Positions 18,866-47,288 of a stretch of 64,000 bases of DNA are shown here, piece after piece (position 1 is the first letter of the stretch; the number at the start of each line of letters is the position of its first letter). The position numbers were made by a program, and so were the translations under genes. Where the stretch lies: positions 496,001 through 560,000 of the forward strand of contig NZ_CP049989.1 of NCBI RefSeq assembly GCF_011388215.1, given 5' to 3'. Below the pieces are notes generated by a model. The model did no database searches and was not told the DNA's origin. It was given only the letters and a program-made list of their open reading frames with translations. This DNA is from Hydrogenophaga crocea. GTDB lineage: Bacteria; Pseudomonadota; Gammaproteobacteria; Burkholderiales; Burkholderiaceae_C.

Positions 18866-19144
18866 ATGGGTTTGCACGCACGCCGCCCTGGCCGCCGCTG
18901 TCACCGCGGCCAGGGCATGACCGAATACATCGTCATCGTCGCGCTGATCGCGGTGGCGGCGATCGCGGTCTACCAGTTCTTCGGCCAGACCATCCGCAAC
19001 CAGACCGCGGGCATCGCGCTGGAGGTCTCGGGCCAGTCGGCCAGCACGGCCATTCAGCAATCCAAGACGGCCGCCGACGCGGCCCTGGCCGAAGGCAACA
19101 AGAAGAAGGGCCTGGGCAGCTACCAGAACGACGAGTCGCGCTAG
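18866..19144 (+). CDS. Flp-like pilin / pseudopilin
   Basis: A 92-residue small protein with a class III (type IV-like) signal: a basic leader of 15 residues ending in Gly15, then QGMTEYIVIVALIAVAAIAV, with Glu20 at position +5 and Tyr21 next, as in Flp pilins. After the hydrophobic helix comes a short Ala/Lys-rich tail. It is the first gene of the cluster and has the best ribosome site, both expected of the major structural subunit. It needs a prepilin peptidase that is not encoded in the window. Confidence 0.75.
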   Translation: MGLHARRPGRRCHRGQGMTEYIVIVALIAVAAIAVYQFFGQTIRNQTAGIALEVSGQSASTAIQQSKTAADAALAEGNKKKGLGSYQNDESR

Positions 19145-19163
19145 TCGCGCCCGTCGCTGCGCC

Positions 19164-20600
19164 ATGCAAGCCCCCTGCCGCTTCGCGCGCGGGCCGGGTT
19201 GCACCGGAAGAAGGCGGGGGCGGAGCGCCCGCCAGCAAGGCCAGGCGCTGGTCTACGGTCTGTTCGTCCTCGTGGGCGGGCTGGCCGCGCTGTTCTTCCT
19301 GTTCAACACCGGCCAGCTCACCCGCGAAAAAACCCAGCTCGTGAACACGGCCGACGCCGTGGCCTACAGCGCGGGCGTGATGAACGCGCGCGCCCTCAAC
19401 CATGCGGCGTACACCAACCGCGCCCTGATCGCCAATGAGGTGGCCATCGCGCAAATGGTGAGCCTGTCGTCGTGGGCGCAGTATGTGCAGACGCATGCCG
19501 ACAGCACGGCGCAGCTGGGCTGCTCGGTGCCCCAGTACGCCGAGCCCACGGCCAAGGCCATGCTGATGTACGCGCCCGTGTGCATCGGCCTGTACTACGC
19601 CAATGCCTATGGCTTCGTGGAGCCCGTGGCGCAGGCCGTGGAGCAGGCCACCGAGGCGGCCGTGCTGCCCGCCGAAGCGGCCAAGCTGGCCCTGCAGGCG
19701 GCCCAGGCCACCATGGCCGCGGCGCTGCCCGGCATGCGACAGGCCGTGATGGAGGAAGTGGCGCGGGCCAACTACGCCGACGACGGCGAGGTGCATGTCG
19801 ATGCCGTGCCGCTGGCCGATGGCTACCTCGACTTCGACGGCCGCCCCTTCATGCACCGCTACAGCGGCGACGAACGCGAGCGCTTCAAGCAGGCCACGCT
19901 GGCCGCCGCGGGCCTCGACCCCTTCCTGCCCACGCGCAGCTGGCGCAGCGAATCGGGCTATCCCACCTGCGTCGACCTCGGGGGCGGGCACAACGACCGC
20001 GTGGAGCGCGCCGGCGGCACCACGCTGGTGGGCTACGACGAATGGCGCGCGCTCGACACGGTGTCGATCTGGCGCTTTCGGCTGCGCGGGCGCTGGGTGC
20101 CGCGCTGCCGCGCCAGCGAGCAGGCGCTGGGCGAGGGCGCGCAGGCCGCCAACACCGGCGATGGCGACGGCGACAACGGCGATGCGCCGGGCGCGCGCAC
20201 CAACCCCAGAGCCACCGCGCAGGCCTCGTCGAACGACTGGCGCTACAGCGGTCTGCCGGGCTTCTTCGAGCTCTCGGCCGCCGCGCGCTCGCAGGCCGGC
20301 GGCGACCCGCGGCTGGACTTCGCGGTGCGTGTCACGCGCGCGGCCGACCAGACGCGCACCTCCGATGCGCGCGCGCAGGTGCCGGCCTCGGCGCGGCTCA
20401 ACCGCTACGCCGCGCGGCCCGCGCGCGCGGTCTACGCCGGTGTGTCGGCGTCGCAGGCCTACTTCGAGCGGCCCACGCCCCGCGACGACGGCAACGCCGA
20501 ACTCGCGAGCCTGTTCAACCCGTACTGGCAGGCGCGGCTGATCGACGCCTCGCCCTACCTGGGCCGCGCGGGCGCGCTGCAGGGCGTGGTGATGCCATGA
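19164..20600 (+). CDS. TadG-like pilus assembly protein
   Basis: A 478-residue protein with a basic N terminus, the segment RQQGQALVYGLFVL and a single membrane helix, then a large periplasmic region. It resembles TadG/TadE-type minor pseudopilins, but position +5 after Gly26 is Tyr31 rather than Glu. The early periplasmic part (NTADAVAYSAGVMNARALNH) is typical of TadG-like proteins. The middle contains a Gly/Asp-rich stretch (about residues 330-345). Immediately downstream of the pilin-like gene. Confidence 0.7.
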   Translation: MQAPCRFARGPGCTGRRRGRSARQQGQALVYGLFVLVGGLAALFFLFNTGQLTREKTQLVNTADAVAYSAGVMNARALNHAAYTNRALIANEVAIAQMVSLSSWAQYVQTHADSTAQLGCSVPQYAEPTAKAMLMYAPVCIGLYYANAYGFVEPVAQAVEQATEAAVLPAEAAKLALQAAQATMAAALPGMRQAVMEEVARANYADDGEVHVDAVPLADGYLDFDGRPFMHRYSGDERERFKQATLAAAGLDPFLPTRSWRSESGYPTCVDLGGGHNDRVERAGGTTLVGYDEWRALDTVSIWRFRLRGRWVPRCRASEQALGEGAQAANTGDGDGDNGDAPGARTNPRATAQASSNDWRYSGLPGFFELSAAARSQAGGDPRLDFAVRVTRAADQTRTSDARAQVPASARLNRYAARPARAVYAGVSASQAYFERPTPRDDGNAELASLFNPYWQARLIDASPYLGRAGALQGVVMP

Positions 20601-20661
20601 GCGCCGCCGGGCCGTTCCCAAGGCGCTCAGCCCCGCAGTGCACGGCACGGAGGGTAGGCCA

Positions 20662-21480
20662 GTGAGCACGCCGGCCTTCCTCCTCGCGACCGTACAGAAG
20701 CCCGCGGGTCGACGGCCGCGCCAGCGCGGCCAGGCGCTCACCGAGTTCCTCGTGGTCGCGCTGGCCCTGGTGCCGCTGTTCCTGCTCATGCCCTGGGTGG
20801 CGCGCTACCAGGACGTGGCGCACAGCACCCTGCTGGCCGCGCGCCACGCGGCCTTCACCGCCATGGCGCGCCACGCCGCGGGCGGCGGCTTCGAGCCCGA
20901 AGCGCAACTCGCGAACGAGCTGCGCCAGCGCTTCTTCGCCGGCGTCGACGCACCGATCCGCAGCGGCGAGACCCCTCGCGGCGCCCCGGCGTTCTGGCAG
21001 CGGCCCGACGGCACGCCCCTGGTGCGCCCGGCCGAGGACGTGACGCTGGCCTTCGGCCCGGGCCCCGGGGGCGCCACGCACGGCGAGGCCTTCTCCGCCG
21101 CGGGCGACGGCCGCGCCTTTCCCTTGCACGGCGCGCTCTCGCTGCAAAGCCGCGGCCTCTACACCGCGCGCGTGCAGGTGCGGCTGGCCGATCTGCCGCC
21201 GGGCCTGCGGGCCTACCAGCCCTTCGATCGGATCGGCCTGGTGGTGTCGCGCCGCACCAGCCTGCTCATCGACGGCTGGGGCGCACGCGATCCCGCCCAG
21301 GTGCAGGGCCGGCTCGACAACCCGCTGGTGTTTCCCGGCAGCGTGCTGCGCCCGCTCTCGGGCCTGGTCGATCCCCTCATGCAGGCGATCGAACTGCCCG
21401 GCGGCATCGGCGCACCCCGGCTGGGCCAGCTCGACTTCTGGCAGGACGTGGTGCCGCCCGACCGCCTGCGCCAGCCATGA
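20662..21480 (+). CDS. TadE-like pseudopilin
   Basis: A 272-residue protein with the class III signal RQRGQALTEFLVVALALVP: cleavage after Gly23, Glu28 at +5. A periplasmic domain of ~230 residues follows. GTG at 20662 is chosen for the gap of only 61 bp and a nearby GGAGGGT; another in-frame GTG at 20638 would add eight residues. The stop overlaps the next gene's ATG. Likely a minor pilin initiating or tipping the fibre. Confidence 0.7.
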   Translation: MSTPAFLLATVQKPAGRRPRQRGQALTEFLVVALALVPLFLLMPWVARYQDVAHSTLLAARHAAFTAMARHAAGGGFEPEAQLANELRQRFFAGVDAPIRSGETPRGAPAFWQRPDGTPLVRPAEDVTLAFGPGPGGATHGEAFSAAGDGRAFPLHGALSLQSRGLYTARVQVRLADLPPGLRAYQPFDRIGLVVSRRTSLLIDGWGARDPAQVQGRLDNPLVFPGSVLRPLSGLVDPLMQAIELPGGIGAPRLGQLDFWQDVVPPDRLRQP

Positions 21481-22199
21481 GCATCGACCGTCTTGCACCG
21501 CCCGGGCGGTGGCTCTGTGCGCTGGGCGTGTATGTCCTGCTGGCCGCGTCCGCGAACGCCGAGCGCCGCTGGCCCGAGCTGGCGCTGCCCGCGGCCGTGA
21601 GCCGCTCGCCGATCACCGACGGGCTGGAACTCAATGGCGTGCCGCTGCGCGTGCAAAGCCTGCGATCGGCCTTGTCGGCCCCCGCGCTCGCGGCCGCCCT
21701 GCGCGCCAGCCTGGGCGGTGCGGTGGTCGAAAGCCGCCTGGGCCGGCAACGCGTGCTGGGTCATGCCCATGGCGGCTTCTACACCACCGTGCAGATCGAC
21801 GAGGGCGAGGCCGCGTCGGGTGGCTCGCGTGCCTTGCTGGTGACCGCCGACCTCGCGCGGGCGGCCGGGCAGCGCGAGCACCAGCAGGCGCTGGTGCGGC
21901 GCTGGCTGCAACGGCTGCCCGCGGGATCGCAGCTGCTGAGCCACACCCGCGCGCGCGACGGCGATCGCTGGTCGAACCAGCTTGTCTACCGCAACGGCCT
22001 GAGCCAGGCGCTCAACGCCCGAGCGCTCGGCACCGCGATGAAGGATCTGGGCATGGCGCTGCGGCACACCGCCGAGACCGGGCGCGTGCTGCTGTTCGAG
22101 GGGCCGGGCCGCGAAGCGCTGGCCGTGATCGGCCGCCTGCCCGACGGGCGCGCGAGCGTGGTGCTCACCACCGTCACCCCGCGGGAGCCGCTGCCGTGA
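21477..22199 (+). CDS. Unknown exported protein of the Tad cluster
   Basis: A 240-residue protein I do not recognise. It starts MSIDRLAPPGRWLCALGVYV with a probable Sec signal ending near ASANAERRW, then a soluble region with no repeats or obvious catalytic motif. It is wedged between the TadE-like gene (4-bp ATGA overlap) and the 59-aa pilin-like gene (overlapping stop), so it is certainly part of the operon and probably periplasmic. A structural or pilotin-like role is only a guess. Confidence 0.6.
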   Translation: MSIDRLAPPGRWLCALGVYVLLAASANAERRWPELALPAAVSRSPITDGLELNGVPLRVQSLRSALSAPALAAALRASLGGAVVESRLGRQRVLGHAHGGFYTTVQIDEGEAASGGSRALLVTADLARAAGQREHQQALVRRWLQRLPAGSQLLSHTRARDGDRWSNQLVYRNGLSQALNARALGTAMKDLGMALRHTAETGRVLLFEGPGREALAVIGRLPDGRASVVLTTVTPREPLP

Positions 22200-22375
22200 A
22201 GGCCCGACCCCGCGCGCGCGGCCAGTCGAGCCTGGAGTACGTGGTGGTCTGCGCCGCGCTGGCCCTGGCGCTGGGCATCGGCATGGGCAGCGACGCCAGC
22301 GTGCTGGTGCAACTGCTCGACGCCCTGCGCGTGGCCTACCAGCGCTTCGGATTTGCGCTGTCGCTGCCCTGGTGA
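22196..22375 (+). CDS. 59-residue pilin-like protein
   Basis: A very small protein missed by length cut-offs: GTG at 22196 overlaps the previous stop (GTGA). It has a clean class III signal, basic leader KARPRARG then QSSLEYVVVCAALALALGIG, with Gly9 as the cleavage point and Glu14-Tyr15 at +5/+6 exactly as in Flp pilins. About 50 residues remain after cleavage, within the range of mature Flp. It could be an alternative major pilin to the product of 18866-19144. Confidence 0.7.
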   Translation: MKARPRARGQSSLEYVVVCAALALALGIGMGSDASVLVQLLDALRVAYQRFGFALSLPW

Positions 22376-22401
22376 ACCCCTTTGTTTTTGTCCATCCGCC
22401 C

Positions 22402-23253
22402 ATGAAACCGCCCGCCGCCTTCACCCGCCTCAAGCCCAACCGACTCTGGATCGTGCTCGGCGTGGCCCTGTCCATCGGCCTGGCCGCCGCGCTCGGTGCG
22501 CGCAGCTACCTGGCCAGCCAGCTCGCCGCGATCGAGGCCCAGGGCAAGGGGCGGATGGTCGAGGTGGTGGTGGCCAAGGTCGACCTCGCCAAAGGCGAGC
22601 GCCTGAGCAGCGACAACCTCGCACTGCGGCCCGTGCCGGCCGACTTCGTGCACAGCCTGGCGCTGCGGCCCGAGCAGTTCGACCGCGTGGACGGCAAGGC
22701 GCTGGCGTTCGACGCCAAGGGCGGCGAAGCGATCCTGCTGGGCATGGTGGAAGGCACGCGCGTGCCCACCTTCTCCGCGCGCGTGGCCCCGGGCCGGCGT
22801 GCGCTGACGGTGCCGGTCGACGAAATCAACGCGATCTCCGGCCTGCTCGAGCCCGGCGACCTGATCGACCTCGTGCTCACGCTCGAACACCAGGGGCGCA
22901 AGCGCGTGTTCCCCTTGCTGCAGGCCGTCACGGTGATGGCCACGGGCCAGCGCGCCCTGGACGATCCGCGCAGCGGCGAGTCGCGGCTGTACGCCACGGT
23001 CACGCTCGACGCCGACCCGGCCGAGGCGCGCAACCTGATCGCCGCGCGCGAGCTCGGCAAGCTCACCGCGCTGCTGCGCCATCCCCAGGACAAGGCGCCG
23101 CTGCCCGGCGCACCGCGAGACCTGCTGGCCTGGCTCGCGGGCGGCGGCGACCCGCTTGCGCGCGAAGTGCCCGTGCTCTACGGCGGGCGCGCCGGCAAGG
23201 TGGCCGCGGGCGACCTGCACCTGGGCGCGCGCCCGGCTGAGCCCAGACCCTGA
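22402..23253 (+). CDS. cpaB: Flp pilus assembly protein CpaB/RcpC
   Basis: A 283-residue protein with an N-terminal membrane anchor (LWIVLGVALSIGLAAALGA), a SAF-like domain (VVVAKVDLAKGERLSSDNLA) and the RcpC/CpaB middle domain ending RRALTVPVDEINAISGLLEP, GDLIDLVLT. It is a periplasmic component that works with the secretin. ATG at 22402 is used; GTG at 22372 overlaps the previous stop and would add ten residues, which is possible because this operon uses such overlaps. Confidence 0.85.
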   Translation: MKPPAAFTRLKPNRLWIVLGVALSIGLAAALGARSYLASQLAAIEAQGKGRMVEVVVAKVDLAKGERLSSDNLALRPVPADFVHSLALRPEQFDRVDGKALAFDAKGGEAILLGMVEGTRVPTFSARVAPGRRALTVPVDEINAISGLLEPGDLIDLVLTLEHQGRKRVFPLLQAVTVMATGQRALDDPRSGESRLYATVTLDADPAEARNLIAARELGKLTALLRHPQDKAPLPGAPRDLLAWLAGGGDPLAREVPVLYGGRAGKVAAGDLHLGARPAEPRP

Positions 23254-23278
23254 CCCCACCCCTTTCACGGACCTTCCC

Positions 23279-24733
23279 ATGCCGCATGTGCCCCGCACCG
23301 CGCCGCTGCTCGCCGCGCTGGTTCTGTTGCCATGGCCGTCGCTCGCGCGGCCGGCCGACACGCTTTATGCCGACAGCCCGCCGCCGCGCATTGGCGCGGC
23401 GCCCCCCACCCGCCGTGCCGCGCGGCCCGTGCGCCCCGCTTACGCACCCATCCGCGAGACCGAGAGCGAGGCCGCGGACGTGGCGGAGATCGAGATGTTC
23501 GTGGGCGAGTCGCGCGTGTTCCCCACGCCGGGCGTGGCACGCATCGCGGTGGGCAACGGCAGCCTGCTCACGGCCGCCGCGCTCGACGACCGCGAGGTGA
23601 TCCTTTTTGCCAACGGCGCGGGCACCTCGTCGCTGTTCGTGTGGAACGCCGACGGCCGGCACCAGCGCATCAAGGTCCACATCGTCGCGGGCGACGTTGG
23701 CCGCGTGGCGCGCGAGGTCGCGGCCTTCCTGGGCGCCATTCCCAACGCGCGCGCCTCGGTGATCGGCGACAAGGTGATCGTCGAGGGCGAGCAGCTCTCC
23801 GACCTCGACCTCGCGAAGATCGAGGTGCTGGCCAAGACCTACCCGCAGATCGTCAACTTCACCAACCGCCTCGGCTGGGAGCAGATGGTGCTCATGGACG
23901 TGAAGGTGGTCGAGTTCCCCGTCAACGAGCTGCGCGAGATCGGGCTGAAGTGGACGGCCATGGGCGGCGCGGCCGTGGGCGGCATCTGGTCGCCCGGGCA
24001 CCGCGGCCCGGTGGCGCCCTACCAGATCGGCGTGCCCTCGGGCACCGGCGGCCTGCCCATCACCAACGCCGACGGTTCGGCCAGCGGCATTCCCGTGCCG
24101 CGCGCGCTCACGCTGCTCAGCGCGGTCAACGCGGGCCTGGGCGCGCAGCTCAACCTGCTGCTGCAGAACGGCCACAGCACCGTGCTCGCCGAGCCGCAGC
24201 TGTCGGCGCGCAACGGCGCCAAGGCGAGCTTTCTCGCGGGCGGCGAATACCCGTACACCGTGTCCACGGTCAACGGGCCCACGGTGCTGTTCAAGCCCTA
24301 TGGCGTGCGGCTCGACATCCAGCCGCGCGTCGACGCGAGCGGTGTGATCCGCGCGACCGTCGAGACCGAGGTGAGCCAGATCGATCCCTCGGTGAGCACG
24401 CCCGCGGGGCCGGCGCTGCTGTCGCGCAAGACCAGCACCGAGTTCAACGTGCGCGACGGCCAGACCCTGGTGCTCAGCGGCCTGATCCAGCGCGAGCAGG
24501 CCGGCCAGGTCGACAAGGTGCCGCTGCTGGGCGACCTGCCCGTGCTCGGCGCGCTGTTCCGCTCGCGGCGCTTCCAGAACAAGGAGACCGAGCTGGTCGT
24601 CTTCGTCACGCCCACCGTGGTCGATGCGCACACGCCCGCGCTGGCCGAGCGCGTGCAGCGCACCGGCGAGCGCCTGCGCTCGCAACTGGGCCCGCCGCCG
24701 CACCTGAGCGAGCCCTTGCAGCCCCTTCCCTGA
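23279..24733 (+). CDS. cpaC: Tad secretin CpaC/RcpA
   Basis: The 484-residue outer-membrane channel of the pilus. After a signal peptide (ending near SLARPADTL) come an N-terminal pilus-secretin domain (VGESRVFPTPGVARIAVGNG), a BON-like part (FLGAIPNARASVIGDKVIVE) and the secretin core ending SGLIQREQAGQVDKVPLLGD, LPVLGALFRSR, the conserved secretin signature. The ATG at 23279 lies 25 bp after cpaB. No separate TadD-type lipoprotein for assembly is present. Confidence 0.9.
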   Translation: MPHVPRTAPLLAALVLLPWPSLARPADTLYADSPPPRIGAAPPTRRAARPVRPAYAPIRETESEAADVAEIEMFVGESRVFPTPGVARIAVGNGSLLTAAALDDREVILFANGAGTSSLFVWNADGRHQRIKVHIVAGDVGRVAREVAAFLGAIPNARASVIGDKVIVEGEQLSDLDLAKIEVLAKTYPQIVNFTNRLGWEQMVLMDVKVVEFPVNELREIGLKWTAMGGAAVGGIWSPGHRGPVAPYQIGVPSGTGGLPITNADGSASGIPVPRALTLLSAVNAGLGAQLNLLLQNGHSTVLAEPQLSARNGAKASFLAGGEYPYTVSTVNGPTVLFKPYGVRLDIQPRVDASGVIRATVETEVSQIDPSVSTPAGPALLSRKTSTEFNVRDGQTLVLSGLIQREQAGQVDKVPLLGDLPVLGALFRSRRFQNKETELVVFVTPTVVDAHTPALAERVQRTGERLRSQLGPPPHLSEPLQPLP

Positions 24734-24756
24734 GCCCCCATCCCCTGGAGACCCCC

Positions 24757-26451: not shown

Positions 26452-26456
26452 GCGCG

Positions 26457-27311
26457 ATGAATGCCCGCCTGTGGCTCATCACCGCCGTGGTGGCGGTCTC
26501 GGCCGCGCTGCTGGCCTGGTTCGTGATCGATGTCGGCACCGGTTCGCTCGCGCGTTACCGCGCGGCCTTCACCGAACGCACGCGCTTCCAGGCGCAGGAG
26601 TTCTTCCTGTTCATCGAGCCGCAAAAGCTCTTCGTGGCCAACCTCGCGGTGATGGCCCTGGGTGCGCTGCTCACCTGGTTGCTCACCGGCAGCGCGTGGC
26701 TGGCGCTGCCCGCGTTCTTCGCGCTGGCCCTGCTGCCGCGCTGGGTGTACGCCACGCTGCGCGCGCGCCGCCTGCGCTGCTTCGAGCACCAGCTGCCCGA
26801 CGCGCTGATGATGCTCGCGGGCGGCATGCGCGCGGGCGTGGGGCTGACCTCGGCGCTGCAGCAACTGGTGGCCGAAAGCGCCCCGCCCCTGGCCCAGGAG
26901 TTCGCGCTGCTGCTGCGCGAGCAGCGCCTGGGCGTCACGCTCGAGCAGGCGCTGACGCACCTGGCGCGGCGCATACCCACGCCCACCACGACGCTGGTGG
27001 TCTCGGCCATGCGCGTGGCCACCGAGACCGGCGGCGCGCTGGCCGAAACGCTGGAGCGCACATCGCACACGCTGCGCGCGCGCCTGCAGATGGAGGGCAA
27101 GATCGGCGCGCTCACCGCCCAGGGCCGGCTGCAGGCCTGGGTGGTGGGCCTGCTGCCGCTGCTGCTCATGGCCGTGCTCAACCGCATGGAGCCCGAGGCC
27201 ATGGCGCTGCTGTGGCACACGCCCCTGGGCTGGGGCACGCTCGCGCTCATCGGCGTGCTCGAGGTGCTGGGCATCGTGGTGATCCGCCGCATCGTCGCCA
27301 TCGACGTCTGA
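26457..27311 (+). CDS. tadB: Tad inner-membrane platform protein TadB
   Basis: A 284-residue protein of the type II secretion F (GspF/TadB) family with two N-terminal membrane segments, the cytoplasmic domain (QLPDALMMLAGGMRAGVGLT, about residues 115-134) and two C-terminal segments. It forms the inner-membrane platform with TadC and contacts the CpaF ATPase. ATG at 26457 is 5 bp after cpaF. Confidence 0.88.
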   Translation: MNARLWLITAVVAVSAALLAWFVIDVGTGSLARYRAAFTERTRFQAQEFFLFIEPQKLFVANLAVMALGALLTWLLTGSAWLALPAFFALALLPRWVYATLRARRLRCFEHQLPDALMMLAGGMRAGVGLTSALQQLVAESAPPLAQEFALLLREQRLGVTLEQALTHLARRIPTPTTTLVVSAMRVATETGGALAETLERTSHTLRARLQMEGKIGALTAQGRLQAWVVGLLPLLLMAVLNRMEPEAMALLWHTPLGWGTLALIGVLEVLGIVVIRRIVAIDV

Positions 27312-27318
27312 GCCCGCC

Positions 27319-28197: not shown

Positions 28198-28202
28198 GCG
28201 CC

Positions 28203-29417
28203 ATGGCCGCCCCCCGACCCCGCGCCGTGCTGCACACCGCCACCGGCCGGCACCCCCTGCACCTGCATCTGGCCGACCGCTTTCTGTCGCGCACGCGTGG
28301 CCTCCTGTTCGCGCCGCCGCTGCCTGATGGCCAGGGCCTGCTGCTGTTGCGCTGCGCCAGCGTGCACACCGGCTTCATGCGTTCTTCGATCGACGTGGTC
28401 TACCTCGATGCCGGTGGTGCGGTGCTGCGCTGCGTGCCCGAGCTGGCACCCTGGCGCCTGAGCGCCTGCGGCCCGCTGCCGCCGGGCCGCGGCCGGCACA
28501 CGCTCGAACTGCCCGCGGGCAGCATCGAGCGCCTGGGCCTGCGCCCCGGCGACCGGCTCGAACACCCGCTGTTCGCCACCGGCCTGCCGCGCCCTTCACG
28601 CCCGCGCACGCCGCGGCGCGAACGCGGGGCGACCCTGGTGGAGTTCACCGTGGTGGGGCCGGTGATCACGCTGCTGGGCCTGGCGCTGCTGCAATACGGC
28701 CTGCTGTTTTTCGCGCGCAATGGCTTCAACCACGCGGCCTTCATGGCCGCGCGCGCGGGCGCGGTGGGCAATGCCAGCCTGGCCAGCGTGCAGGCGGCCT
28801 ACGTGCGCGCGCTGGTGCCGCTGTACGGCGGTGGCCGCGACAGCGCGGAGCTCGCGCAGGCCCATGCGCGGGCCGCGGCCGACGTGGCGGCCCACACCCG
28901 CATCGAGCTGCTCAACCCCAGCCGCGCCAGCTTCGACGACTGGAACGACCCTGCGCTGCAGCGCGCGCTGGGGCAGGGCCGGCGCGTCATTCCCCACGCG
29001 AACATGGCCTTCAGGAACCCGGCCGAGGTGCGTGCGTCTTCGGGCCAGAACATCCACGACGCCAACCTGATCCGGCTGCGCATCACCCAGGGCTACGCAC
29101 CCCCGGTGCCGCTGGTGCGCCAGCTCTACAGCCAGTACCTGCGCTGGCAGGACCCGGGCACCGACGCCTTCCGCACGCAACTGATCGCGGCCGGGCGCAT
29201 CCCCATCGTGGCGCACGTGACCCTGCAGATGCAGTCCGATGCGATCGAGCCCGACACGCCCTCGACGCAGCCCGCGGGCGAGGGCGGCGGCACGCCGGCC
29301 GGCGAGGGCGGTGCGGGTGGTGGCGGTGGCGCGGGCGGGGGCACGGACCCGGGTCCGTCCGATGGCGCTGGCGACCCGGGCGGGGGTGGTTCGGCCGTGT
29401 GTGGCGTAGCGGGGTGA
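28203..29417 (+). CDS. DUF192 domain fused to a TadE-like pseudopilin
   Basis: One open frame of 404 residues joins two families. Residues ~5-125 are DUF192 (LSRTRGLLFAPPL, CASVHTGFMRSSIDVVYLDA, LELPAGSIERLGLRPGDRL). After a Pro/Arg-rich linker comes RERGATLVEFTVVGPVITLL, a class III prepilin site with Gly142 and Glu147 at +5, then a TadE-type periplasmic part and a Gly-rich tail (from ~358). There is no stop between the halves and no ATG or GTG just before the pilin part. If cleaved at Gly142, DUF192 would be a very long cytoplasmic leader. Confidence 0.75.
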   Translation: MAAPRPRAVLHTATGRHPLHLHLADRFLSRTRGLLFAPPLPDGQGLLLLRCASVHTGFMRSSIDVVYLDAGGAVLRCVPELAPWRLSACGPLPPGRGRHTLELPAGSIERLGLRPGDRLEHPLFATGLPRPSRPRTPRRERGATLVEFTVVGPVITLLGLALLQYGLLFFARNGFNHAAFMAARAGAVGNASLASVQAAYVRALVPLYGGGRDSAELAQAHARAAADVAAHTRIELLNPSRASFDDWNDPALQRALGQGRRVIPHANMAFRNPAEVRASSGQNIHDANLIRLRITQGYAPPVPLVRQLYSQYLRWQDPGTDAFRTQLIAAGRIPIVAHVTLQMQSDAIEPDTPSTQPAGEGGGTPAGEGGAGGGGGAGGGTDPGPSDGAGDPGGGGSAVCGVAG

Positions 29418-29422
29418 GCACC

Positions 29423-32400
29423 ATGAAACGGACCATGGCCTTGCTGGCCCTGCTGCTGTGCACGACCCTGGCGGCCCACGCCGCCTGCGACCCCACCCAG
29501 ATGTGCTGCGCCGGCGGCGACGGCGCGGGCCTGGGCAGCCCCTGCGGCGGCGCGGGCGTGGCCACGCTGGGCAATGCCTCGGGCACCGACCAGGGCGTGG
29601 GCAACCCGATCCACGTCATCGGCGGCAACAAGCACCAGCGCGAGGTCGACATGGCCGCGCTGCCCGGCGTGCTCGGGCTCGAACTCGTGCGCCACTACAA
29701 CAGCGCCGAACACGGCAAGGGCGTGCTCGGGCGCGGCTGGCGGCTGAGCTACGAGAGCGAACTCAGCGTGCGCGGCGACGGCCTGCAGATCGTGCAGGGC
29801 GACGGCACGCGGCTGCGCTTCGAGCGCGTGCCCCAGCGCCCCGACACCTACCGCACCCGCGAGCCCCTGCAAGGCCGGGTGCGCGCGCAGGCCGTGGCCG
29901 GCGGCACCCAACACGTCTGGACCTGGGCCGACGGCCGCGAACTGCGCTTCGACCCCCGGGGCCGGCTCGAACAGATCCGCGTGCCCAGCGGCGAATTCCT
30001 GAGCCTGCGCCACGACGAACGCGGCTGGCTGCGCGAGGTCATCGACCCCGCGGGGCGGCGGCTCGTGCTGCACTACCCGGGCCGCCGCGGCGAACACAGC
30101 GAAGACGGCTTCCGCGGCGTGTACGCCATCGACACCCCCGTGGGCCGTTTCGGCTACGCGCACGGCGCCGCGCTGCCCGCGGGCTCGCGCGCCGACCCGC
30201 GCGAACGCATCGCCAGCCTGGTGCGCGTCACCGCCCCCGCCGCCGCGGGCCAGCCCGCGCGCGTGCGCCACTACCACCACGAAGACCCGCGCTGGCCCGT
30301 GCTGCTCACCGGCATCAGCGAACAGCAGGGCGAGCCGCCCCCGCAGCGCCTGAGCACCTGGGCCTACGACGCGCAGGGCCGCGCCGTGCTCAGCTTCAAG
30401 GGCGAGCGCCGCGCCGGTGCACCCGGCCTCGAACAGGTGCGCCTGCAATGGCTGCCCACGCACGGCGGCCGCGCCGGCCAGGGCCACACCCGGCTCACCA
30501 ACAGCCTGGGCCAGACCACCGACTACACCACGGCCCTCGTGGCGGGCCAGCCGCGCATCCTGCAGGTGCGCGGCGCGGGCTGCGCCGCCTGCGGGCCGGC
30601 CAACGTGCGCTACGCCTATGACCGCCTGGGCCGGCTCGTCGAAGAAACCCGGCTCGACGCGCGCGGCCGGCCCGTGCTCACCCAGCGCAGCGAGCGCGAC
30701 GCGCAGGGCCGCGTCACGCAGCGCAGCCTCGTGCGCTACCGCCGCGGCCGGCCCCTGCCCGCGCAATGGCGCGTGCGCTACGCCTACGCGCCGCTCGACA
30801 CGAGCGACCCCGACGCGCTGCCCGAGCCGCAGCCGCTGCGCATCGAGCGCCCGAGCGTGGTGGCGGGGCGGGTGCACACGCTGCGTCTGGCCTACAACGC
30901 GGCGCGGCAGCTGCTGCGGGTGGACGAGAGCGGGTACAGCCCGGTGGACGGGCAAGGCCGCGTCGTGCCCAACGGCGTGGCGATCGAACGCAGCACCGGA
31001 TACGGCTACGCGACCATCAACGGGCGCAGCGTGCGCGTGCAACAGGACGGGCCCCTGCCCAACGGGCCGCTGAACAGCCCGGCCGACTCGGACATCACGC
31101 GCTACGGCTGGGACGCGCGCGGCGACCGGGTGGTGCAGATCACAGGGCCGGGGGGTGAGGGGGTGCGCATGGCGCGCGAGCCGGACACGGGCCGTTTGCG
31201 GCAGGCGCCTGAGGCCGCCGGCCACGGCGCGCCTGCCATCCGCGAAGCCTTCGACGCCGCAGGCCGGCTGCTGTGGCAGGCCGACGCGCGCGGCATCCTG
31301 CGCCAGGCAAGCTACGACTGCGAAGGCCATCTGCTCGCCACGCGCGTCGTCGGCGCCGGCATCGACCAGCAGGAGCGCTACGAGCGCGATGCCCGGGGCC
31401 GCCTGCGGCGCGTGAGCGACGACAGCAGCGCGCATACCGATCTCGTGCGCGACGAAGACGGGCGCCTCGTGGCGAGCATCGATCCCCTGGGCCGCTGGAC
31501 CCGCTACGAGCGCGAGGCCGCCGCCTTGCGCGTGGTGCAGGCGGCCAACACCCATCAGCCGCTGACCTTGCACCACGCCATCGACGCGCAGGGGCGCTGG
31601 CACACCCTCGGCGCCGAGGCCCACGACGGCCGGCGCGTGCTGCGGCGCGTGACGCACCGGCGCTGGTGGGACGACTTCGGCCGCGAGGTCGCGGTGGAGC
31701 ACCCCGACAGCGGCCGCGAGCTGCGCCGCTTCGACGCCATGGACCGCCTGGTGGGCATGCTGCCCGCCGATGGCAGCCGGATCACGCTCGAGCGCGACAC
31801 GGCGGGACGCCTCGTGCAGCGCCGGGTGACGCCGCCCGCGGGCAGCGCGAACACGCCCGCGCAGACCGTGCACTACCGCTACCAGGGCGGCGCGCTCGCG
31901 GCCGTCGAAGGGCCCGAGCAGACCGAGCGCTACGCGCGCGACGAACAAGGCCACGTGGTCGAGAAGGCCGTGTCGCTGCGGCTCAACGACGGTCGCTGGG
32001 TGCGCAGCACCACCCGCTACCGCCGCGACGACCAGGGCCTGCTGGCCGCGCAAAGCCTGCCCGACGGCAGCGAGCTGCAGTTCGAGCGCAACGGCCAGGG
32101 CCAGGTGGTGGCGCTGCATTGGCAGGCCGGGCCGTGGGCGCCGTTCGGCGCGGGCCGCGTGACCCTGGCCCGCGACCTGCGGCGCGACCTCATCGGTCTC
32201 ACGCACATCGCCTACGGCAACGGCATCGAAGGCGATTGGCAGCGCAGCCGCCAGGGTGTGCTGTCGCGCGTGGCGTACACGGCCGCGCCGCACACCGCGC
32301 CCGGCCCGCGCGAGCCCCGCGGGCTGTGGGACAGCCGCCTGCGCTTCGATGCCGCGGGCAACGTGCTGATGAGCCGCGACGACGCGAGCGGCCTCGGGGC

Positions 32401-34378
32401 CGGCGTGGCGCAACTGGCGCTCGCCTACGGCCCGCAGGACCAGTTGCTGCAGGCGGTGCGAAACGCCGGACCCGACGCCCCCGCCACCACCTGGCGCTAC
32501 CACCACGACAGCCTGGGCGATCGGCTGCTCGCCCAGCAGCCCGGACCCGGTGGCGGTGCGGCGCCCACTGAGCGCGACCCGGGCCGCGACCTGCCACGCG
32601 ATGGCGCGGGACGGGTGCTGCGCGACGGCACGCGGCAGTACGCCTGGGACGTCCTGGGCCGGCTGACCGGCGTCACGCAGGCGGGCGAGACCACCCGCTA
32701 CCGCCACGACCACCGCGGACTGCGCGTGGCCGAGCGGGGCCGGCGCTCGCAACACCACCTGCACGACGACGCGCGCCACCGCATCGCCGACCTCGATGCA
32801 CAAGGCCGCATCACGCGCCAGTACGTGTGGCTGGGCGAGCGGCTGCTCGCGGTGATCGACCCGCCCCAGCCCGTGCCGCTGCGCGCGCCGGCCGAGGGCG
32901 TGTGGCAGGCGCTGGGCCGCGCCGCGGCGCTGGCCTGGCAGGGCCTGCGCGGCGCGCGGCCGGCGATACGCTACGTGCATGCCAACCACCTGGGCGCGCC
33001 CGTGGCGGCCACCGACGAGCGCGGTGCGACGCTGTGGACCGCGGTGTACACGCCCTTCGGTCAGCGCCTGCCCGCTCCGTGGAGCCTGTCGCGCGGCGGC
33101 TTCCGGCTCGACCTGCGCCTGCCCGGGCAATGGGAAGACGAGGCCACCGGCCTGCACGCCAACGACCAGCGCGTCTACGACCCGCAGGCCGGGCGCTACC
33201 TCAGCCCCGACCCCCTGGGCCTGGCGGGCGGGCTCAACGCCTACGCCTACGTGGGCAACAACCCGCTGGGCCACGTGGATCCGCTCGGGCTGGTGCTGTT
33301 CGCCTTCGATGGCACGGACAACACCAACGACGAGGAATGGCTGCGGGCGCGTGGGGGGTCGGTGTCGAACGTGTGGCGGTTCAGGCAGCTGTACGCCGAT
33401 GGTTCGGCGCGCTACATCACCGGCGTGGGCACGCTGCACCGCGACCCGAACTACGGCGACATCGTGCCGCCCTGGCTGGACAACGCCCTCAATTACTCGG
33501 GCGTGGCGCGCATCGACCGCATGCTGCGGTACTTCAACGACGAGGCCGATCTCGCGCTCGACGACGACGCCGCGATGGCGGTCGACATCGTCGGCTTCAG
33601 CCGCGGCGCGTCCGAGGCGCGCGACTTCGCGAACCAGATCGTGGCCGCGACGCGCGATGGCTTCTACCACTACACGGCGATCGGCAGCGACGGCGCGCCG
33701 CAGGCCCGCTGCCAGCGCGTGGACCTGCGCTTCATGGGCCTGTTCGACACAGTGCTCAGCACAAACGCCGGCCGCGACTACCAGCTCGCGATCCCCGACG
33801 CTTTCACCCACGTGGCGCAGGCCGTGGCCTTGAACGAGTACCGGGGCAACACCCTGCATCCCTACGGGTCGGTGGGCGCCTTCCCGCTGGAATCGATTGC
33901 CCAGGCGGCGAACGGTCCCGAGGAGCCCGGGCCGGGGCGCACGCGCATCGAGCGGGGGTTTGTGGGCGCGCACGCCGACATCGGCGGGGGCTTTGGGGAA
34001 AGCGAGAACCAGCTGGCCAGGGTGGCGCTGGTGTGGATGGTCGAGCAGGCCGAGGCGGCGGGGATCAGGATGCAGGAGGCCCCCTCCACGGTCATGGCGA
34101 ACCCGGTCGTTCACGACCGCAGCAACAGCATCCTGACCGGCGCACCCGATCCCGGCGCCGAAGACCGTCAGGTGCGCTACGGCGGCGGTGATCGCGCCAC
34201 CCAGCGCCAGATGCCCTTCGTCTCGGGCATGAGCTGGGCCGACACCGGGGCCTTCATCGACTACCTGCCGCCCGACGACCCGCAACGGCAGCGCTTCGTG
34301 ACCGGCACGGTGGACATGGCGGGCTACCTCGACTGGTTGAACCGCAACGGCTACGGCCTGAACCTGAAAGTGGAGTGA
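29423..34378 (+). CDS. Secreted RHS-repeat toxin with C-terminal DUF2235 (Tle1-like) lipase
   Basis: A 1651-residue polymorphic toxin. It has a Sec signal peptide (MKRTMALLALLLCTTLAAHA), a Cys-rich stretch, a DUF6531 domain (GNPIHVIGGNKHQREVDM), many RHS/YD repeats, and the RHS core end (YDPQAGRYLSPDPLGLAGG, VGNNPLGHVDPLGL) near residue 1287. The tip is DUF2235/Tle1-like: FDGTDN (1295-1300), nucleophile GFSRG with Ser1393, candidate Asp1442 and His1517 in GAHADIGGGF. This predicts phospholipase or esterase activity. No PAAR domain is seen. The ATG is 5 bp after the Tad gene. Confidence 0.9.
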   Translation: MKRTMALLALLLCTTLAAHAACDPTQMCCAGGDGAGLGSPCGGAGVATLGNASGTDQGVGNPIHVIGGNKHQREVDMAALPGVLGLELVRHYNSAEHGKGVLGRGWRLSYESELSVRGDGLQIVQGDGTRLRFERVPQRPDTYRTREPLQGRVRAQAVAGGTQHVWTWADGRELRFDPRGRLEQIRVPSGEFLSLRHDERGWLREVIDPAGRRLVLHYPGRRGEHSEDGFRGVYAIDTPVGRFGYAHGAALPAGSRADPRERIASLVRVTAPAAAGQPARVRHYHHEDPRWPVLLTGISEQQGEPPPQRLSTWAYDAQGRAVLSFKGERRAGAPGLEQVRLQWLPTHGGRAGQGHTRLTNSLGQTTDYTTALVAGQPRILQVRGAGCAACGPANVRYAYDRLGRLVEETRLDARGRPVLTQRSERDAQGRVTQRSLVRYRRGRPLPAQWRVRYAYAPLDTSDPDALPEPQPLRIERPSVVAGRVHTLRLAYNAARQLLRVDESGYSPVDGQGRVVPNGVAIERSTGYGYATINGRSVRVQQDGPLPNGPLNSPADSDITRYGWDARGDRVVQITGPGGEGVRMAREPDTGRLRQAPEAAGHGAPAIREAFDAAGRLLWQADARGILRQASYDCEGHLLATRVVGAGIDQQERYERDARGRLRRVSDDSSAHTDLVRDEDGRLVASIDPLGRWTRYEREAAALRVVQAANTHQPLTLHHAIDAQGRWHTLGAEAHDGRRVLRRVTHRRWWDDFGREVAVEHPDSGRELRRFDAMDRLVGMLPADGSRITLERDTAGRLVQRRVTPPAGSANTPAQTVHYRYQGGALAAVEGPEQTERYARDEQGHVVEKAVSLRLNDGRWVRSTTRYRRDDQGLLAAQSLPDGSELQFERNGQGQVVALHWQAGPWAPFGAGRVTLARDLRRDLIGLTHIAYGNGIEGDWQRSRQGVLSRVAYTAAPHTAPGPREPRGLWDSRLRFDAAGNVLMSRDDASGLGAGVAQLALAYGPQDQLLQAVRNAGPDAPATTWRYHHDSLGDRLLAQQPGPGGGAAPTERDPGRDLPRDGAGRVLRDGTRQYAWDVLGRLTGVTQAGETTRYRHDHRGLRVAERGRRSQHHLHDDARHRIADLDAQGRITRQYVWLGERLLAVIDPPQPVPLRAPAEGVWQALGRAAALAWQGLRGARPAIRYVHANHLGAPVAATDERGATLWTAVYTPFGQRLPAPWSLSRGGFRLDLRLPGQWEDEATGLHANDQRVYDPQAGRYLSPDPLGLAGGLNAYAYVGNNPLGHVDPLGLVLFAFDGTDNTNDEEWLRARGGSVSNVWRFRQLYADGSARYITGVGTLHRDPNYGDIVPPWLDNALNYSGVARIDRMLRYFNDEADLALDDDAAMAVDIVGFSRGASEARDFANQIVAATRDGFYHYTAIGSDGAPQARCQRVDLRFMGLFDTVLSTNAGRDYQLAIPDAFTHVAQAVALNEYRGNTLHPYGSVGAFPLESIAQAANGPEEPGPGRTRIERGFVGAHADIGGGFGESENQLARVALVWMVEQAEAAGIRMQEAPSTVMANPVVHDRSNSILTGAPDPGAEDRQVRYGGGDRATQRQMPFVSGMSWADTGAFIDYLPPDDPQRQRFVTGTVDMAGYLDWLNRNGYGLNLKVE

Positions 34379-34380
34379 CG

Positions 34381-34953
34381 ATGGACCCTTTGAACGACGA
34401 ACAAGCGGCGCGCCGCCGGTGGCTGGCGCTGATGTCCCTATGTTTCTGCGGCCCAGGGTGCACCACGGGCACTGTGGACTCGGAAGCAGGGGGCGTGGAT
34501 CAGCAGCGGCGGTTTCGCGGGATCGGGCTGGTGCTGGTGGTGGATGCGGTGCCGGGGGTGGAGATGGCCGGCGTGGTGTTCGAGGACGACAAAGGCGCGA
34601 CCGTATATGCGAAGTCGGTTTTAAGCAGGAGAACCCGCGAAATCATGGCCTTCGGCAGCACGCGAGTGCCTTTGTTCGTGCGGGTCCTGTGGCGTGACCA
34701 CCCCAAACCCGTCTGGGGCCGCCAGGGCAGCATCGACTACGAGGGTCCCATCATCGGCGACCACACCGTGCCCGTCGCCGCCCGCATCCCCGACGCGGTC
34801 CTGCGCGACATCCGCGCCAAGCCCGGCAGCCTGCGCCTGAAGTTCCGCCTCAAACCCGACGGCGTGCTGTTCGGCTGGGACATCGAGCGCGATGGCGGCG
34901 GTGTCTCGCGCTTCGACAGCCCGGGCGGGGATTTTCTGGAAACGCGGTACTGA
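34381..34953 (+). CDS. Candidate immunity protein 1
   Basis: A 190-residue protein beginning 2 bp after the RHS stop, preceded by GGAG. The N terminus is basic then hydrophobic (RRRWLALMSLCFCGPGCTTG), a probable signal or lipoprotein peptide, though the lipobox (GPGC) is poor. The rest has FRGIGLVLVVDAVPGVEM and the C-terminal block VPVAARIPDAVLRDI, PGSLRLKFRLKPDGVLFGWD, shared with the next two genes. I do not recognise the family. Tle1-type lipases are usually paired with periplasmic or lipoprotein immunity proteins, often in tandem copies, so immunity is inferred from position. Confidence 0.6.
   Translation: MDPLNDEQAARRRWLALMSLCFCGPGCTTGTVDSEAGGVDQQRRFRGIGLVLVVDAVPGVEMAGVVFEDDKGATVYAKSVLSRRTREIMAFGSTRVPLFVRVLWRDHPKPVWGRQGSIDYEGPIIGDHTVPVAARIPDAVLRDIRAKPGSLRLKFRLKPDGVLFGWDIERDGGGVSRFDSPGGDFLETRY
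34501..34567 (+). repeat. 5' segment repeated in the second paralogue
   Basis: The 67 bases starting CAGCAGCGGCGGTTTCGCGG are nearly the same as 35086-35152 in the next gene, differing at a few positions. Between this and the 3' repeat the genes are much more different, so the similarity is patchy. Confidence 0.8.
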
Positions 34954-34957
34954 GCGG
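34768..34957 (+). repeat. 190-bp near-identical repeat, copy 1
   Basis: The 3' end of candidate immunity gene 1, through its stop codon and four bases beyond, matches 35347-35536 with a single substitution (AAGCCCGGC against AAGCCGGGC), as read by eye. The offset is 579 bp. Such identity beside a diverged middle indicates recent duplication or gene conversion. Confidence 0.9.
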
Positions 34958-34974
34958 TAGACAAGGGCACAACC

Positions 34975-35532
34975 ATGCAATCCAAACGAACGCTTTGCCT
35001 GGCGCGCCGCCAGTGGTTCGCCGTGATATCCCTGTGTTTCTACAGCGCAGGCTGCACCACGGGTCCGGATGCGCCAACCGTGGACCAGCAGCGGCGGTTT
35101 CGCGGGGTCGGGCTGGTGCTGGTGGTGGACGCGGTGCCGGGGGCAGAGATGGAGGGCGTTACCTTCCACGACGAACGGGGAACGTTGATCTTCGCCTCGG
35201 CGGTCGTGGCCAGGCGCAACCGAGCGATCATGGCCACCGGCGCCACCCATGTGCCGGAAACGGTTCACGTGGTCTGGCGACAGAACGGGCAATACGACTT
35301 CAGCCGCGCCACCTGGTACGGCGGGACGGTCCTCGGTGACCACTCTGTGCCCGTCGCCGCCCGCATCCCCGACGCGGTCCTGCGCGACATCCGCGCCAAG
35401 CCGGGCAGCCTGCGCCTGAAGTTCCGCCTCAAACCCGACGGCGTGCTGTTCGGCTGGGACATCGAGCGCGATGGCGGCGGTGTCTCGCGCTTCGACAGCC
35501 CGGGCGGGGATTTTCTGGAAACGCGGTACTGA
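34975..35532 (+). CDS. Candidate immunity protein 2
   Basis: A 185-residue paralogue of the preceding gene: N-terminal signal-like segment (QWFAVISLCFYSAGCTTG, weak lipobox SAGC), diverged middle, and the same C-terminal half, identical in protein from VPVAARIPDAV to the end (ETRY). It starts 21 bp after gene 1. Divergence in the middle and identity at the ends suggest that the middle carries specificity. Role inferred as for gene 1. Confidence 0.6.
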   Translation: MQSKRTLCLARRQWFAVISLCFYSAGCTTGPDAPTVDQQRRFRGVGLVLVVDAVPGAEMEGVTFHDERGTLIFASAVVARRNRAIMATGATHVPETVHVVWRQNGQYDFSRATWYGGTVLGDHSVPVAARIPDAVLRDIRAKPGSLRLKFRLKPDGVLFGWDIERDGGGVSRFDSPGGDFLETRY

Positions 35533-35536
35533 GCGG
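35347..35536 (+). repeat. 190-bp near-identical repeat, copy 2
   Basis: Second copy of the repeat at 34768-34957, again ending just after a stop codon. One difference was seen in 190 bases. Confidence 0.9.
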
Positions 35537-35556
35537 CCGCGGCCGCGGGAGTGACG

Positions 35557-36126
35557 ATGGGACGCGAACGCAAGAATCCACAAGCGCCGGGCAGTCCCTG
35601 GTCGGGGTTGATGCCCTCGGGCGTGACGCCCACGGGCGGGGCGCCGACCGACACCGGCACGCCCCTGAGGCCGGCCGATCTGGTGCGGCGCTTTCGCGGC
35701 ATGGACTGGTTGATGCTGGTCGATGCGGTGCCCGACACCCGCATGCACAGCGTCACCTTCCACGACGACCTCGGGGCCCTGATCCATGCCTCGGCGCGGG
35801 TGACGAGCCGCTACCGCGAGATCCGCGCCTTCGTGCAGCGGCGCGTGCCGCTGAGCCTGCGGGTGGTGTGGCGCCAATGCGGCCACTGCCCGGCGGAGCG
35901 CATCGCCTGGGTCGACGACGGCGCGATCGGCGACCACACCGTGCCCGTGGCGGCCCGCATCCCCGACGCAGTACTGATCGACCTGAAGGCCAGGCCCGGC
36001 AGCTTGCGCCTGAAATTCCGGCTCGCGCCCGAGGGCGTGCTGTTCGGCTGGGACGTGGAGCGCTACAGCCGCGGCGTCGTGCGCTTCGACTGCCCGGGCG
36101 GCGATTTTTCGGAGGCGCGCCGCTGA
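35557..36126 (+). CDS. Candidate immunity protein 3, without signal peptide
   Basis: A 189-residue third paralogue. It shares VRRFRGMDWLMLVDAVPDTR and PGSLRLKFRLAPEGVLFGWD with the other two but is more diverged and its DNA is not near-identical. Unlike them it starts with a polar Pro/Gly/Thr-rich segment (GRERKNPQAPGSPWSG) with no hydrophobic stretch or Cys, so it should be cytoplasmic. The ATG at 35557 sits in the same GTGACGATG context as gene 1 (an alternative GTG is at 35551). It converges on the LysR gene 6 bp away. Confidence 0.6.
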   Translation: MGRERKNPQAPGSPWSGLMPSGVTPTGGAPTDTGTPLRPADLVRRFRGMDWLMLVDAVPDTRMHSVTFHDDLGALIHASARVTSRYREIRAFVQRRVPLSLRVVWRQCGHCPAERIAWVDDGAIGDHTVPVAARIPDAVLIDLKARPGSLRLKFRLAPEGVLFGWDVERYSRGVVRFDCPGGDFSEARR

Positions 36127-47287: not shown

Positions 47288-47288
47288 T

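What the first reader, a model, noticed from the sequence alone, without database searches (positions are those of the whole stretch)
18866..36126. Tad-type pilus operon running directly into a secreted RHS-lipase toxin and tandem immunity candidates
Fifteen same-strand genes, with mostly overlapping or under-25-bp junctions (one of 61 bp), link a pilin-like gene, secretin, FHA-CpaF, TadB/TadC and a TadE fusion to a 1651-residue RHS protein with a DUF2235 tip and three paralogous small genes. The RHS start is 5 bp after the last Tad gene. RHS toxins are usually linked to T6SS or Sec/T2-like export; I know of no described Tad-linked RHS toxin. Inference: the Tad machine exports, displays or positions the toxin, or the two are co-regulated for contact-dependent antagonism.
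Basis: partly seen in the sequence, partly recalled or inferred. Interest (0 to 1): 0.82.

Follow-up and report, generated by a model that had tools for sequence, protein, structure and literature searches.

The report
Tad pilus loci carrying swappable toxins
A bacterial surface-pilus gene cluster ends in a secreted RHS toxin gene followed by likely protective genes, and in related bacteria the same pilus-tip gene keeps company with many different toxins, which suggests that the pilus delivers or displays them.

Summary
In detail: 15 same-strand genes (18866-36126) run from an Flp-like pilin through a Tad machine into a Sec-signal-like RHS protein with a Tle1-like lipase tip and three paralogous candidate immunity genes; tadE and RHS lie 5 bp apart. 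It recurs. In 28 of 66 related tadE loci that I could read (24 genomes, not a random sample), tadE is directly followed by, or in frame with, a toxin or toxin-like gene; in one family sample 11 of 20. Tips vary: Tle1-like, DUF6765, RNase A-like, barnase-like, pesticin, TreTu, DUF6883 and unassigned ones. Non-RHS toxins share a Cys-rich N-terminal module that matched well only beside tadE. One genome has three tadE-RHS cassettes away from its single Tad machine, like spare tips. Best explanation: the toxin leaves by Sec and is secreted or displayed by the TadE minor-pilin complex (compare TcpF/TcpB and Kil). Delivery, docking and killing are unproven; a T2SS-type GspL gene is present, one close RHS paralogue has no Tad or tadE gene nearby, and several related loci have no toxin. 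The T6SS sheath gene searched is absent. My searches of open literature found no Tad-linked polymorphic toxin family.

The parts
18866..19144 (+). Flp-like major pilin candidate
   Evidence: PF04964 3.3e-4, below cut-off; 86% identical in L002
19164..20600 (+). TadG-like protein
   Evidence: PF13400 3.4e-6
20638..21480 (+). pilin-like minor subunit (by eye), GTG start; 20662 possible
   Evidence: no Pfam hit; conserved in place in L002, L003, L014, L015, L017
21477..22199 (+). signal-peptide-like protein (by eye), conserved orf240
   Evidence: only a sub-cut-off Pfam match; conserved position in L002, L003, L014
22196..22375 (+). 59-aa pilin-like protein
   Evidence: conserved in L003, L004, L014; weak Class III signal 0.026
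22372..23253 (+). RcpC/CpaB
   Evidence: PF16976 1.4e-22
23279..24733 (+). outer-membrane secretin RcpA/CpaC
   Evidence: PF00263 6e-43, PF13629
24757..26451 (+). FHA-CpaF/TadA ATPase
   Evidence: PF00437 2.6e-64, PF00498 2e-8
26457..27311 (+). TadB
   Evidence: PF00482
27319..28197 (+). TadC
   Evidence: PF00482
28203..29417 (+). DUF192-TadE fusion; TadE minor pilin with Gly-rich C-terminal tail that ends near a Cys
   Evidence: PF02643 2e-15, PF07811 3e-9; the two domains are separate genes in L002-L004 and fused in L015, L017; tail 59 aa, 1 Cys
29423..34378 (+). RHS polymorphic toxin, 1651 aa, with signal-peptide-like start (by eye)
   Evidence: PF20148, PF05593, PF03527, PF09994
29486..29602 (+). 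Cys-rich linker just after the presumed signal peptide (cut by eye)
   Evidence: sequence; a Cys is invariant in 9 aligned RHS relatives
33293..34378 (+). Tle1-like lipase tip: GFSRGA (aa 1391), GLFDTV (1439), GAHADIGGG (1515)
   Evidence: PF09994; PDB 4o5p Tle1 3.7e-7; motif positions; their catalytic role is recalled
34375..34953 (+). candidate immunity protein 1, lipoprotein-like start (by eye)
   Evidence: homologues follow Tle1-tipped RHS in L004, L013, L120
34975..35532 (+). candidate immunity protein 2, lipoprotein-like start (by eye)
   Evidence: 68% identical to imm1
35551..36126 (+). candidate immunity protein 3, no clear signal peptide (by eye)
   Evidence: 49% identical to imm1

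Best explanation
This is a Tad (type IVc pilus) machine whose TadE minor pilin has its own cargo: a swappable polymorphic toxin with immunity genes. Steps: (1) the toxin crosses the inner membrane by Sec (inferred from its signal-like N terminus); (2) in the periplasm its N-terminal Cys-bearing segment docks on the TadE-containing minor-pilin complex, probably through TadE's long C-terminal tail (inferred); (3) the FHA-CpaF motor and secretin extend the pilus and push out or display the toxin at contact (inferred); (4) the tip, here a Tle1-like phospholipase, attacks the target envelope (inferred from sequence), and the lipoprotein-like paralogues downstream protect kin (inferred from co-occurrence). 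Shown by comparison: recurrent tadE-toxin pairing, tip swapping, tadE-toxin pairs away from the machine, the shared N-terminal module, the TadE tail correlation. Not shown: secretion, docking, killing, immunity.
For: Pairing: tadE is directly followed by, or in frame with, a toxin or toxin-like gene in 28 of 66 readable loci (23 of 56, 5 of 10). Cleaner denominators: family sample, 11 of 20 readable of 22 places; third family, 6 of 13 places (with L096, L104, L105). In the same 349 family genomes TadE matched in 21 and this RHS N-terminus in 9, all 9 among the 21 (p = 1.5e-12); without the genomes that gave RHS query rows, 5 of 5 (p = 1.6e-7); 8 of 10 RHS places lie within 4 kb downstream of TadE. 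Swapping: PF09994, DUF6765, RNAse_A_bac, Ribonuclease, Pesticin, Tox-REase-5, TreTu, DUF6883. Spare pairs: single-contig genome G816 has three tadE-RHS pairs with three different ends and no Tad machine gene found in 17.6-19.5 kb upstream or about 10-11 kb downstream, while its Tad machine is a fourth locus with no toxin after tadE. Module: its only new hit in 349 genomes lies 6.6 kb after TadE in G469. TadE tail of 30 aa or more with Cys: 22 of 22 scorable toxin loci, 6 of 30 without. A 651-aa TadE frame in L125 runs into a toxin-like region. No VipB in the genome.
Against: No experiment. A second RHS (97% DNA identity over 1743 bp of the N-terminal part) lies at 3.08 Mb without Tad or tadE genes in the 35 kb read, and in G521 an RHS lies on another contig than TadE with no Tad gene in the 9 kb read. 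A T2SS-type GspL gene is present. Of 7 new high-scoring TadE loci in the third family 2 have no toxin downstream (L154, L158; L158 has an RHS upstream). Tails occur without toxin, and the tail test is not significant out of sample (p = 0.43). The tadE of one G816 pair (L156) is interrupted by a stop. The extension in L125 and the ends of L100, L121 short toxin, L006, L123 and L155 match no Pfam toxin family, so 'toxin' rests there on architecture or an immunity-like neighbour. Labels were mine and not blind; related loci are not independent (CpaF tree: 10 label changes against about 15 shuffled, not one clade).
Confidence: 0.69

Rival explanations
1. Co-regulation only: the toxin is Sec/T2SS-secreted or surface-anchored on its own, and sits beside tadE because both serve surface life and contact with rivals.
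For: Signal-peptide polymorphic toxins are listed under T2SS/Sec export in PMC3482391 (passages); GspL is present in this genome; an unlinked RHS paralogue exists.
Against: Does not explain tadE-RHS pairs far from the machine, several toxin types sharing one N-terminal module matched well only beside tadE, the TadE tail correlation, or the TadE frame that runs into a toxin-like region.
Confidence: 0.21
2. Insertion hotspot: the 3' end of tadE is a landing site for mobile toxin-immunity cassettes without functional coupling.
For: Orphan tips and cassettes downstream (L004, L123); toxin presence is patchy on the CpaF tree.
Against: Tight junctions, signal-like starts, one RHS N-terminal clade found only in TadE-bearing genomes of the sample (9 of 9), the shared module, and tadE travelling with the toxin.
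Confidence: 0.08
3. The RHS is a T6SS effector that merely lies beside Tad.
For: The tip family is named after T6SS Tle1 effectors.
Against: No VipB match in the single-contig, 99.99% complete genome, while the control genome Escherichia coli matched; signal-like N terminus; no PAAR family match.
Confidence: 0.02

Closest known systems
Kil Tad-like apparatus of Myxococcus xanthus (PMC8460266 passages; PMC12075869 abstract, section 16 and passages)
   Same: Tad-type machine tied to contact killing; single ATPase with N-terminal FHA domain; interchangeable minor-pilin tips with variable domains; effector delivery, or a tip that is itself toxic, proposed.
   Different: Kil genes lie in two clusters and cooperate with a T3SS-like complex, and PMC8460266 says its toxin remains to be discovered; here toxin and immunity candidates are encoded next to tadE. 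In the CpaF tree the myxobacterial rows (L033, L036), used as the root, sit on a long branch apart from the other rows.
TcpF/TcpB and CofJ/CofB, type IVb pilus-dependent secretion (PMC9565799 abstract and passages)
   Same: A protein encoded in a pilus operon docks by its N terminus on a minor pilin and is secreted through pilus dynamics; there this is shown.
   Different: Those are colonisation factors of type IVb pili; here Tad (IVc), large polymorphic toxins with immunity candidates, and a Cys-rich rather than aromatic N-terminal motif. Docking is not tested here.
RHS polymorphic toxins (PMC3482391 passages; T6SS, T7SS and Sec types from search listings)
   Same: Conserved RHS core, variable C-terminal tip, immunity candidates downstream, orphan tips.
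   Different: Linked to tadE; a whole-word search of PMC3482391 for pilus, pilin, Tad and secretin gave 0 (first 300,000 characters).
Tle1 phospholipase effectors (PDB 4o5p, 6sjl, 9j3f)
   Same: Sequence matches, with shared GFSRGA, LFDTV and H-D-(I/V)-GGG regions in the 4o5p alignment.
   Different: Here the domain is the tip of a signal-peptide RHS; the 4o5p, 6sjl and 9j3f proteins are T6SS-type by name or from recall. Activity untested.

Membership tests
Tad/Flp pilus machine | Flp pilin, RcpC, secretin, TadA ATPase, TadB, TadC, TadE/G in one locus | tested here: met
   the Flp match is below Pfam's cut-off
Tad/Flp pilus machine | own prepilin peptidase TadV and TadZ/CpaE | tested here: inconclusive
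   none among the 15 genes; one A24 peptidase in the genome at 4.41 Mb; TadZ not searched elsewhere
Polymorphic toxin system | conserved N-terminal and RHS part, swappable tip, immunity gene next door | tested here: met
   immunity by position and co-occurrence only
T6SS Rhs effector | T6SS in the genome; PAAR/VgrG link | tested here: not met
   no VipB; no PAAR match; other T6SS markers not searched
Tle1 phospholipase | conserved sequence of the Tle1 catalytic domain | tested here: met
   (sequence only)
Tle1 phospholipase | phospholipase activity | not testable with these tools
   needs an enzyme assay
Kil system | FHA-fused ATPase | tested here: met
   CpaFs of loci without Kil kinship match over the same region too
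Kil system | genes in two clusters; T3SS-like partner | tested here: not met
   one operon; partner not searched
Kil system | ATPase closely related to the myxobacterial one | tested here: not met
   CpaF tree, L033 and L036 as outgroup on a long branch
Pilus-dependent secretion by minor-pilin docking (TcpF type) | N terminus of the cargo binds the minor pilin | not testable with these tools
   binding needs experiment; structure jobs for TadE and imm1-3 failed and the tool was then off

The most novel reading that the evidence does not exclude
A distinct contact-dependent weapon class in this bacterial order: a Tad pilus used as a general effector launcher with interchangeable cartridges. Each cartridge is a TadE minor pilin plus its toxin and immunity gene; TadE's Cys-bearing tail (or fused domain) is the loading dock, a Cys-rich N-terminal segment of the toxin is the secretion signal, DsbG-like proteins may handle the cysteines, and one machine can serve several cartridges, some far from it.
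Probability: 0.45. Interest if true: 0.92.

Novelty: new variant of a known kind. Interest (0 to 1): 0.8.

Why it matters
The cargo of the one Tad machine known to kill was unknown in PMC8460266 ('toxin remains to be discovered'). Loci that encode machine, toxin and immunity candidates together would make the question 'can a Tad pilus deliver a toxin, and how is cargo chosen' directly testable, and would add a delivery route to the list of polymorphic toxin systems. The N-terminal module, the TadE tail and the tadE-toxin pairs give searchable signatures.

Tried and rejected
Disfavoured: T6SS delivery (one marker). Rejected: simple one-clade inheritance; toxin-linked CpaFs cluster but need 10 changes on the tree (54 of 61 loci given yielded a row). 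Tried without result: PADLOC; Pfam and solved structures for the L125 C-terminal region; Pfam for L100, the L121 short toxin, the L006 and L123 tips and the own second RHS tip. The module search in 399 order genomes returned the three training places plus three weak ones (E 0.003-0.007) in frames of 32-53 aa, one with stops inside, read as chance.

How the loci were chosen: by score; all 80 loci were scanned for TadE but only those with a match counted, 24 of 42 places were read (18 low-scoring ones were not), 21 of 22, all 13. So 28 of 66 is not a rate for Tad loci at large. Loci set aside: L016, L018, L097, L101 (contig ends at or near tadE) and L132 (1.4 kb downstream, no toxin seen). The rule was uneven: L002 and L095 also end soon after tadE but count as toxin because an RHS start is visible. 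The tail comparison dropped 4 of 56 rows that my pattern could not score (L120 toxin; L008, L107, L111 none); by eye all four have tails with a Cys, which would make it 23 of 23 against 9 of 33. Tails in L102, L125, L155, L157 and L160 are or include fused regions. The first TadE alignment used a wrong frame for L016 and one RHS alignment a wrong frame for L123; both were redone without that row.

Literature: searches (open PMC library only) listed no paper on a Tad-linked RHS or polymorphic toxin family; I read titles and abstract starts of the listings. Subscription papers and preprints are not covered.
Full report
WHERE. The window is G000:C1:496001-560000 of a 4.56 Mb single-contig genome, mostly 67-76% G+C. 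A 'same genus' genome, G015, has a contig of 78,686 bp, the length of the contig of L019, recorded as Hydrogenophaga sp.; the tadE scores and tails of L005 and L019 are identical. So the genus is probably Hydrogenophaga.

OBSERVATION. Translation and Pfam confirm the 15-gene string and its content. Junctions overlap or are short; no + strand terminator-like site lies between the ATPase and the last immunity candidate. The RHS begins with a signal-like stretch, a Cys-rich linker, DUF6531 and RHS repeats and ends in a tip that matches Tle1 (Pfam 8e-15; PDB 4o5p 3.7e-7).

RELATIVES IN THE GENUS. Of 100 genomes (own included) searched with DUF192-TadE, 25 had some match, part of them over the DUF192 part alone; five other same-genus genomes have E below 1e-30. 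In G020 and G018 tadE is followed by an RHS with the same kind of tip and a homologous immunity gene; in G038 the contig ends inside an RHS N terminus right after tadE. In G015 and G007 tadE is followed by a different secreted toxin: PT-HINT plus an RNase A-like domain, and PT-HINT with a PoNi immunity gene next door.

BEYOND THE GENUS. Massilia brevitalea and Telluria antibiotica have the DUF192-TadE fusion followed by RHS with a DUF6765 tip. Searches of 399 order genomes, 349 family genomes and 50 genomes of a further family gave more loci, of which I read those named under Tried and rejected. Tally of loci with TadE score of 100 or more: one search lists 61 (23 toxin, 33 none, 5 set aside); one search adds 10 (5 and 5). 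So 28 of 66: 19 RHS directly after tadE, 8 non-RHS, 1 in frame with TadE (L125). They come from 24 genomes with family codes f1, f8, f22 and f50 or named Oxalobacteraceae. Clean samples: family 11 of 20 readable (22 places, one set aside, one not fetched); further family 6 of 13. L119 and L121 lie on contigs with both a short toxin and an RHS; G469 has an RHS and then a second toxin with PT-HINT and Tox-REase-5.

MACHINE GENES. cpaF, tadB and tadC relatives lie upstream in the window and in 19 of the other 27 toxin loci; 2 show tadC only, 3 are cut by a contig end (L098, L100, first tadE of L121), and 3 have none. These 3 are all in G816, a single-contig genome: L155, L156 and L157, with three different RHS ends (unassigned, TreTu, DUF6883), have no Tad machine gene in 17.6-19.5 kb fetched upstream nor downstream in the 13 kb stretches. 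Its machine is a fourth locus (L161/L169), without toxin after tadE. G802 has a machine with tadE and RHS (L159/L168) and a second DUF192-tadE without machine genes (L158), 1.6 kb downstream of another RHS. TadE and toxin thus travel together without the machine. The tadE of L156 is interrupted by a stop.

CHANCE. The RHS N-terminal profile (A9) and the TadE profile (A6) were run on the same 349 family genomes. RHS: 10 places in 9 genomes, all 9 among the 21 with TadE (p = 1.5e-12); without the four genomes that gave rows to A9, 5 of 5 (p = 1.6e-7). Eight of ten places lie within 4 kb downstream of TadE; the exceptions are the own second copy at 3.08 Mb and G521 (L149).

SHARED N-TERMINAL MODULE. 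Eight non-RHS toxins (L005, L006, L098, L099, L100, L119, L121, L127) share, after the signal-like start, a motif of about 45 residues with three invariant Cys. Their ends are RNase A-like, pesticin, barnase-like, GH19-like (below cut-off), PLA2-like (very weak, 0.025) or unassigned. Its profile found in 399 order genomes only the three training places with good scores, and in 349 family genomes four, three of training and one new; the new one is in the Tad locus of G469, 6.6 kb after its TadE. RHS toxins have instead a Cys-bearing linker before DUF6531.

TADE TAIL. Scored toxin-linked TadEs continue for 59 residues or more past their conserved MQS motif with 1-7 Cys; 24 of 30 scored TadEs without toxin stop within 24. 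Counts 22 of 22 against 6 of 30, p = 1.6e-9, uncorrected for kinship. In the further family 3 of 3 scorable toxin loci and 2 of 4 without toxin have tails, not significant alone. Several TadEs there and in Rugamonas (L016) end in an OmpA-like domain (by eye), which could mean peptidoglycan anchoring and complicates a pilus-tip picture.

THE OWN GENOME. No VipB, a GspL, one A24 prepilin peptidase far away. The second RHS (L117:7994-13078) shares 97% DNA identity over 1743 bp, about aa 17-590, then drops to about 25% amino-acid identity; it has another tip, with a tandem copy of that tip and signal-peptide-like genes beside it. The conserved part includes the Cys linker, as expected if both use one route.

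IMMUNITY. Homologues of the three small genes follow Tle1-like tips in L004 (two), L013 and L120, and one more lies in L123 beyond its RHS; the other hits were copies of these. L124 and L160, with Tle1-like tips, gave none, and L159 only very weak matches.

MECHANISM. PMC9565799 shows that a protein encoded in a pilus operon can be secreted by docking its N terminus on a minor pilin; the Kil papers show a Tad machine with interchangeable minor-pilin tips at sites of contact killing (PMC8460266, PMC12075869). By analogy I propose docking of the toxin on the TadE complex. The spare tadE-toxin pairs, the shared module, the TadE tail and the L125 frame fit; so do DsbG-like genes beside short toxins (L098 and L119 by NCBIfam, below cut-off; L099, L100, L121 by eye). 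None proves it.

Noticed in passing
G000:C1:3075-3083 kb (L117:4789-13078): Second RHS with near-identical N-terminal third, different tip, a tandem tip copy (92% identical over 404 aa) and two signal-peptide-like neighbours; orphan-cassette layout.
   Followed up: partly
window 34375-35532: imm1 and imm2 share the same last stretch (the 60 bases up to the stop are identical), a recent duplication or gene conversion.
   Followed up: no
window 46001-50872: A lower G+C stretch (0.62 at 46-48 kb) with two unassigned genes and a peptidase-C39 ABC transporter, as in peptide bacteriocin exporters (recalled).
   Followed up: partly
L125:7927-9879: TadE in one frame with about 345 further residues that look like a pretoxin plus toxin domain (by eye); no family match; a 170-aa gene follows.
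   Followed up: partly
L162, L163, L109, L024: In some Tad loci without toxin, haemagglutinin-like giant genes (with a TpsB-like gene in L162 and L163) lie near tadE (by eye).
   Followed up: no
L098, L099, L100, L119, L121: DsbG-like periplasmic thiol proteins encoded behind short Cys-rich toxins and their immunity candidates.
   Followed up: partly
L155, L156, L157, L161 (G816); L158/L167 (G802): tadE-RHS pairs without Tad machine genes nearby, beside a separate machine locus in the same genome; in L158/L167 the RHS lies upstream of tadE.
   Followed up: partly
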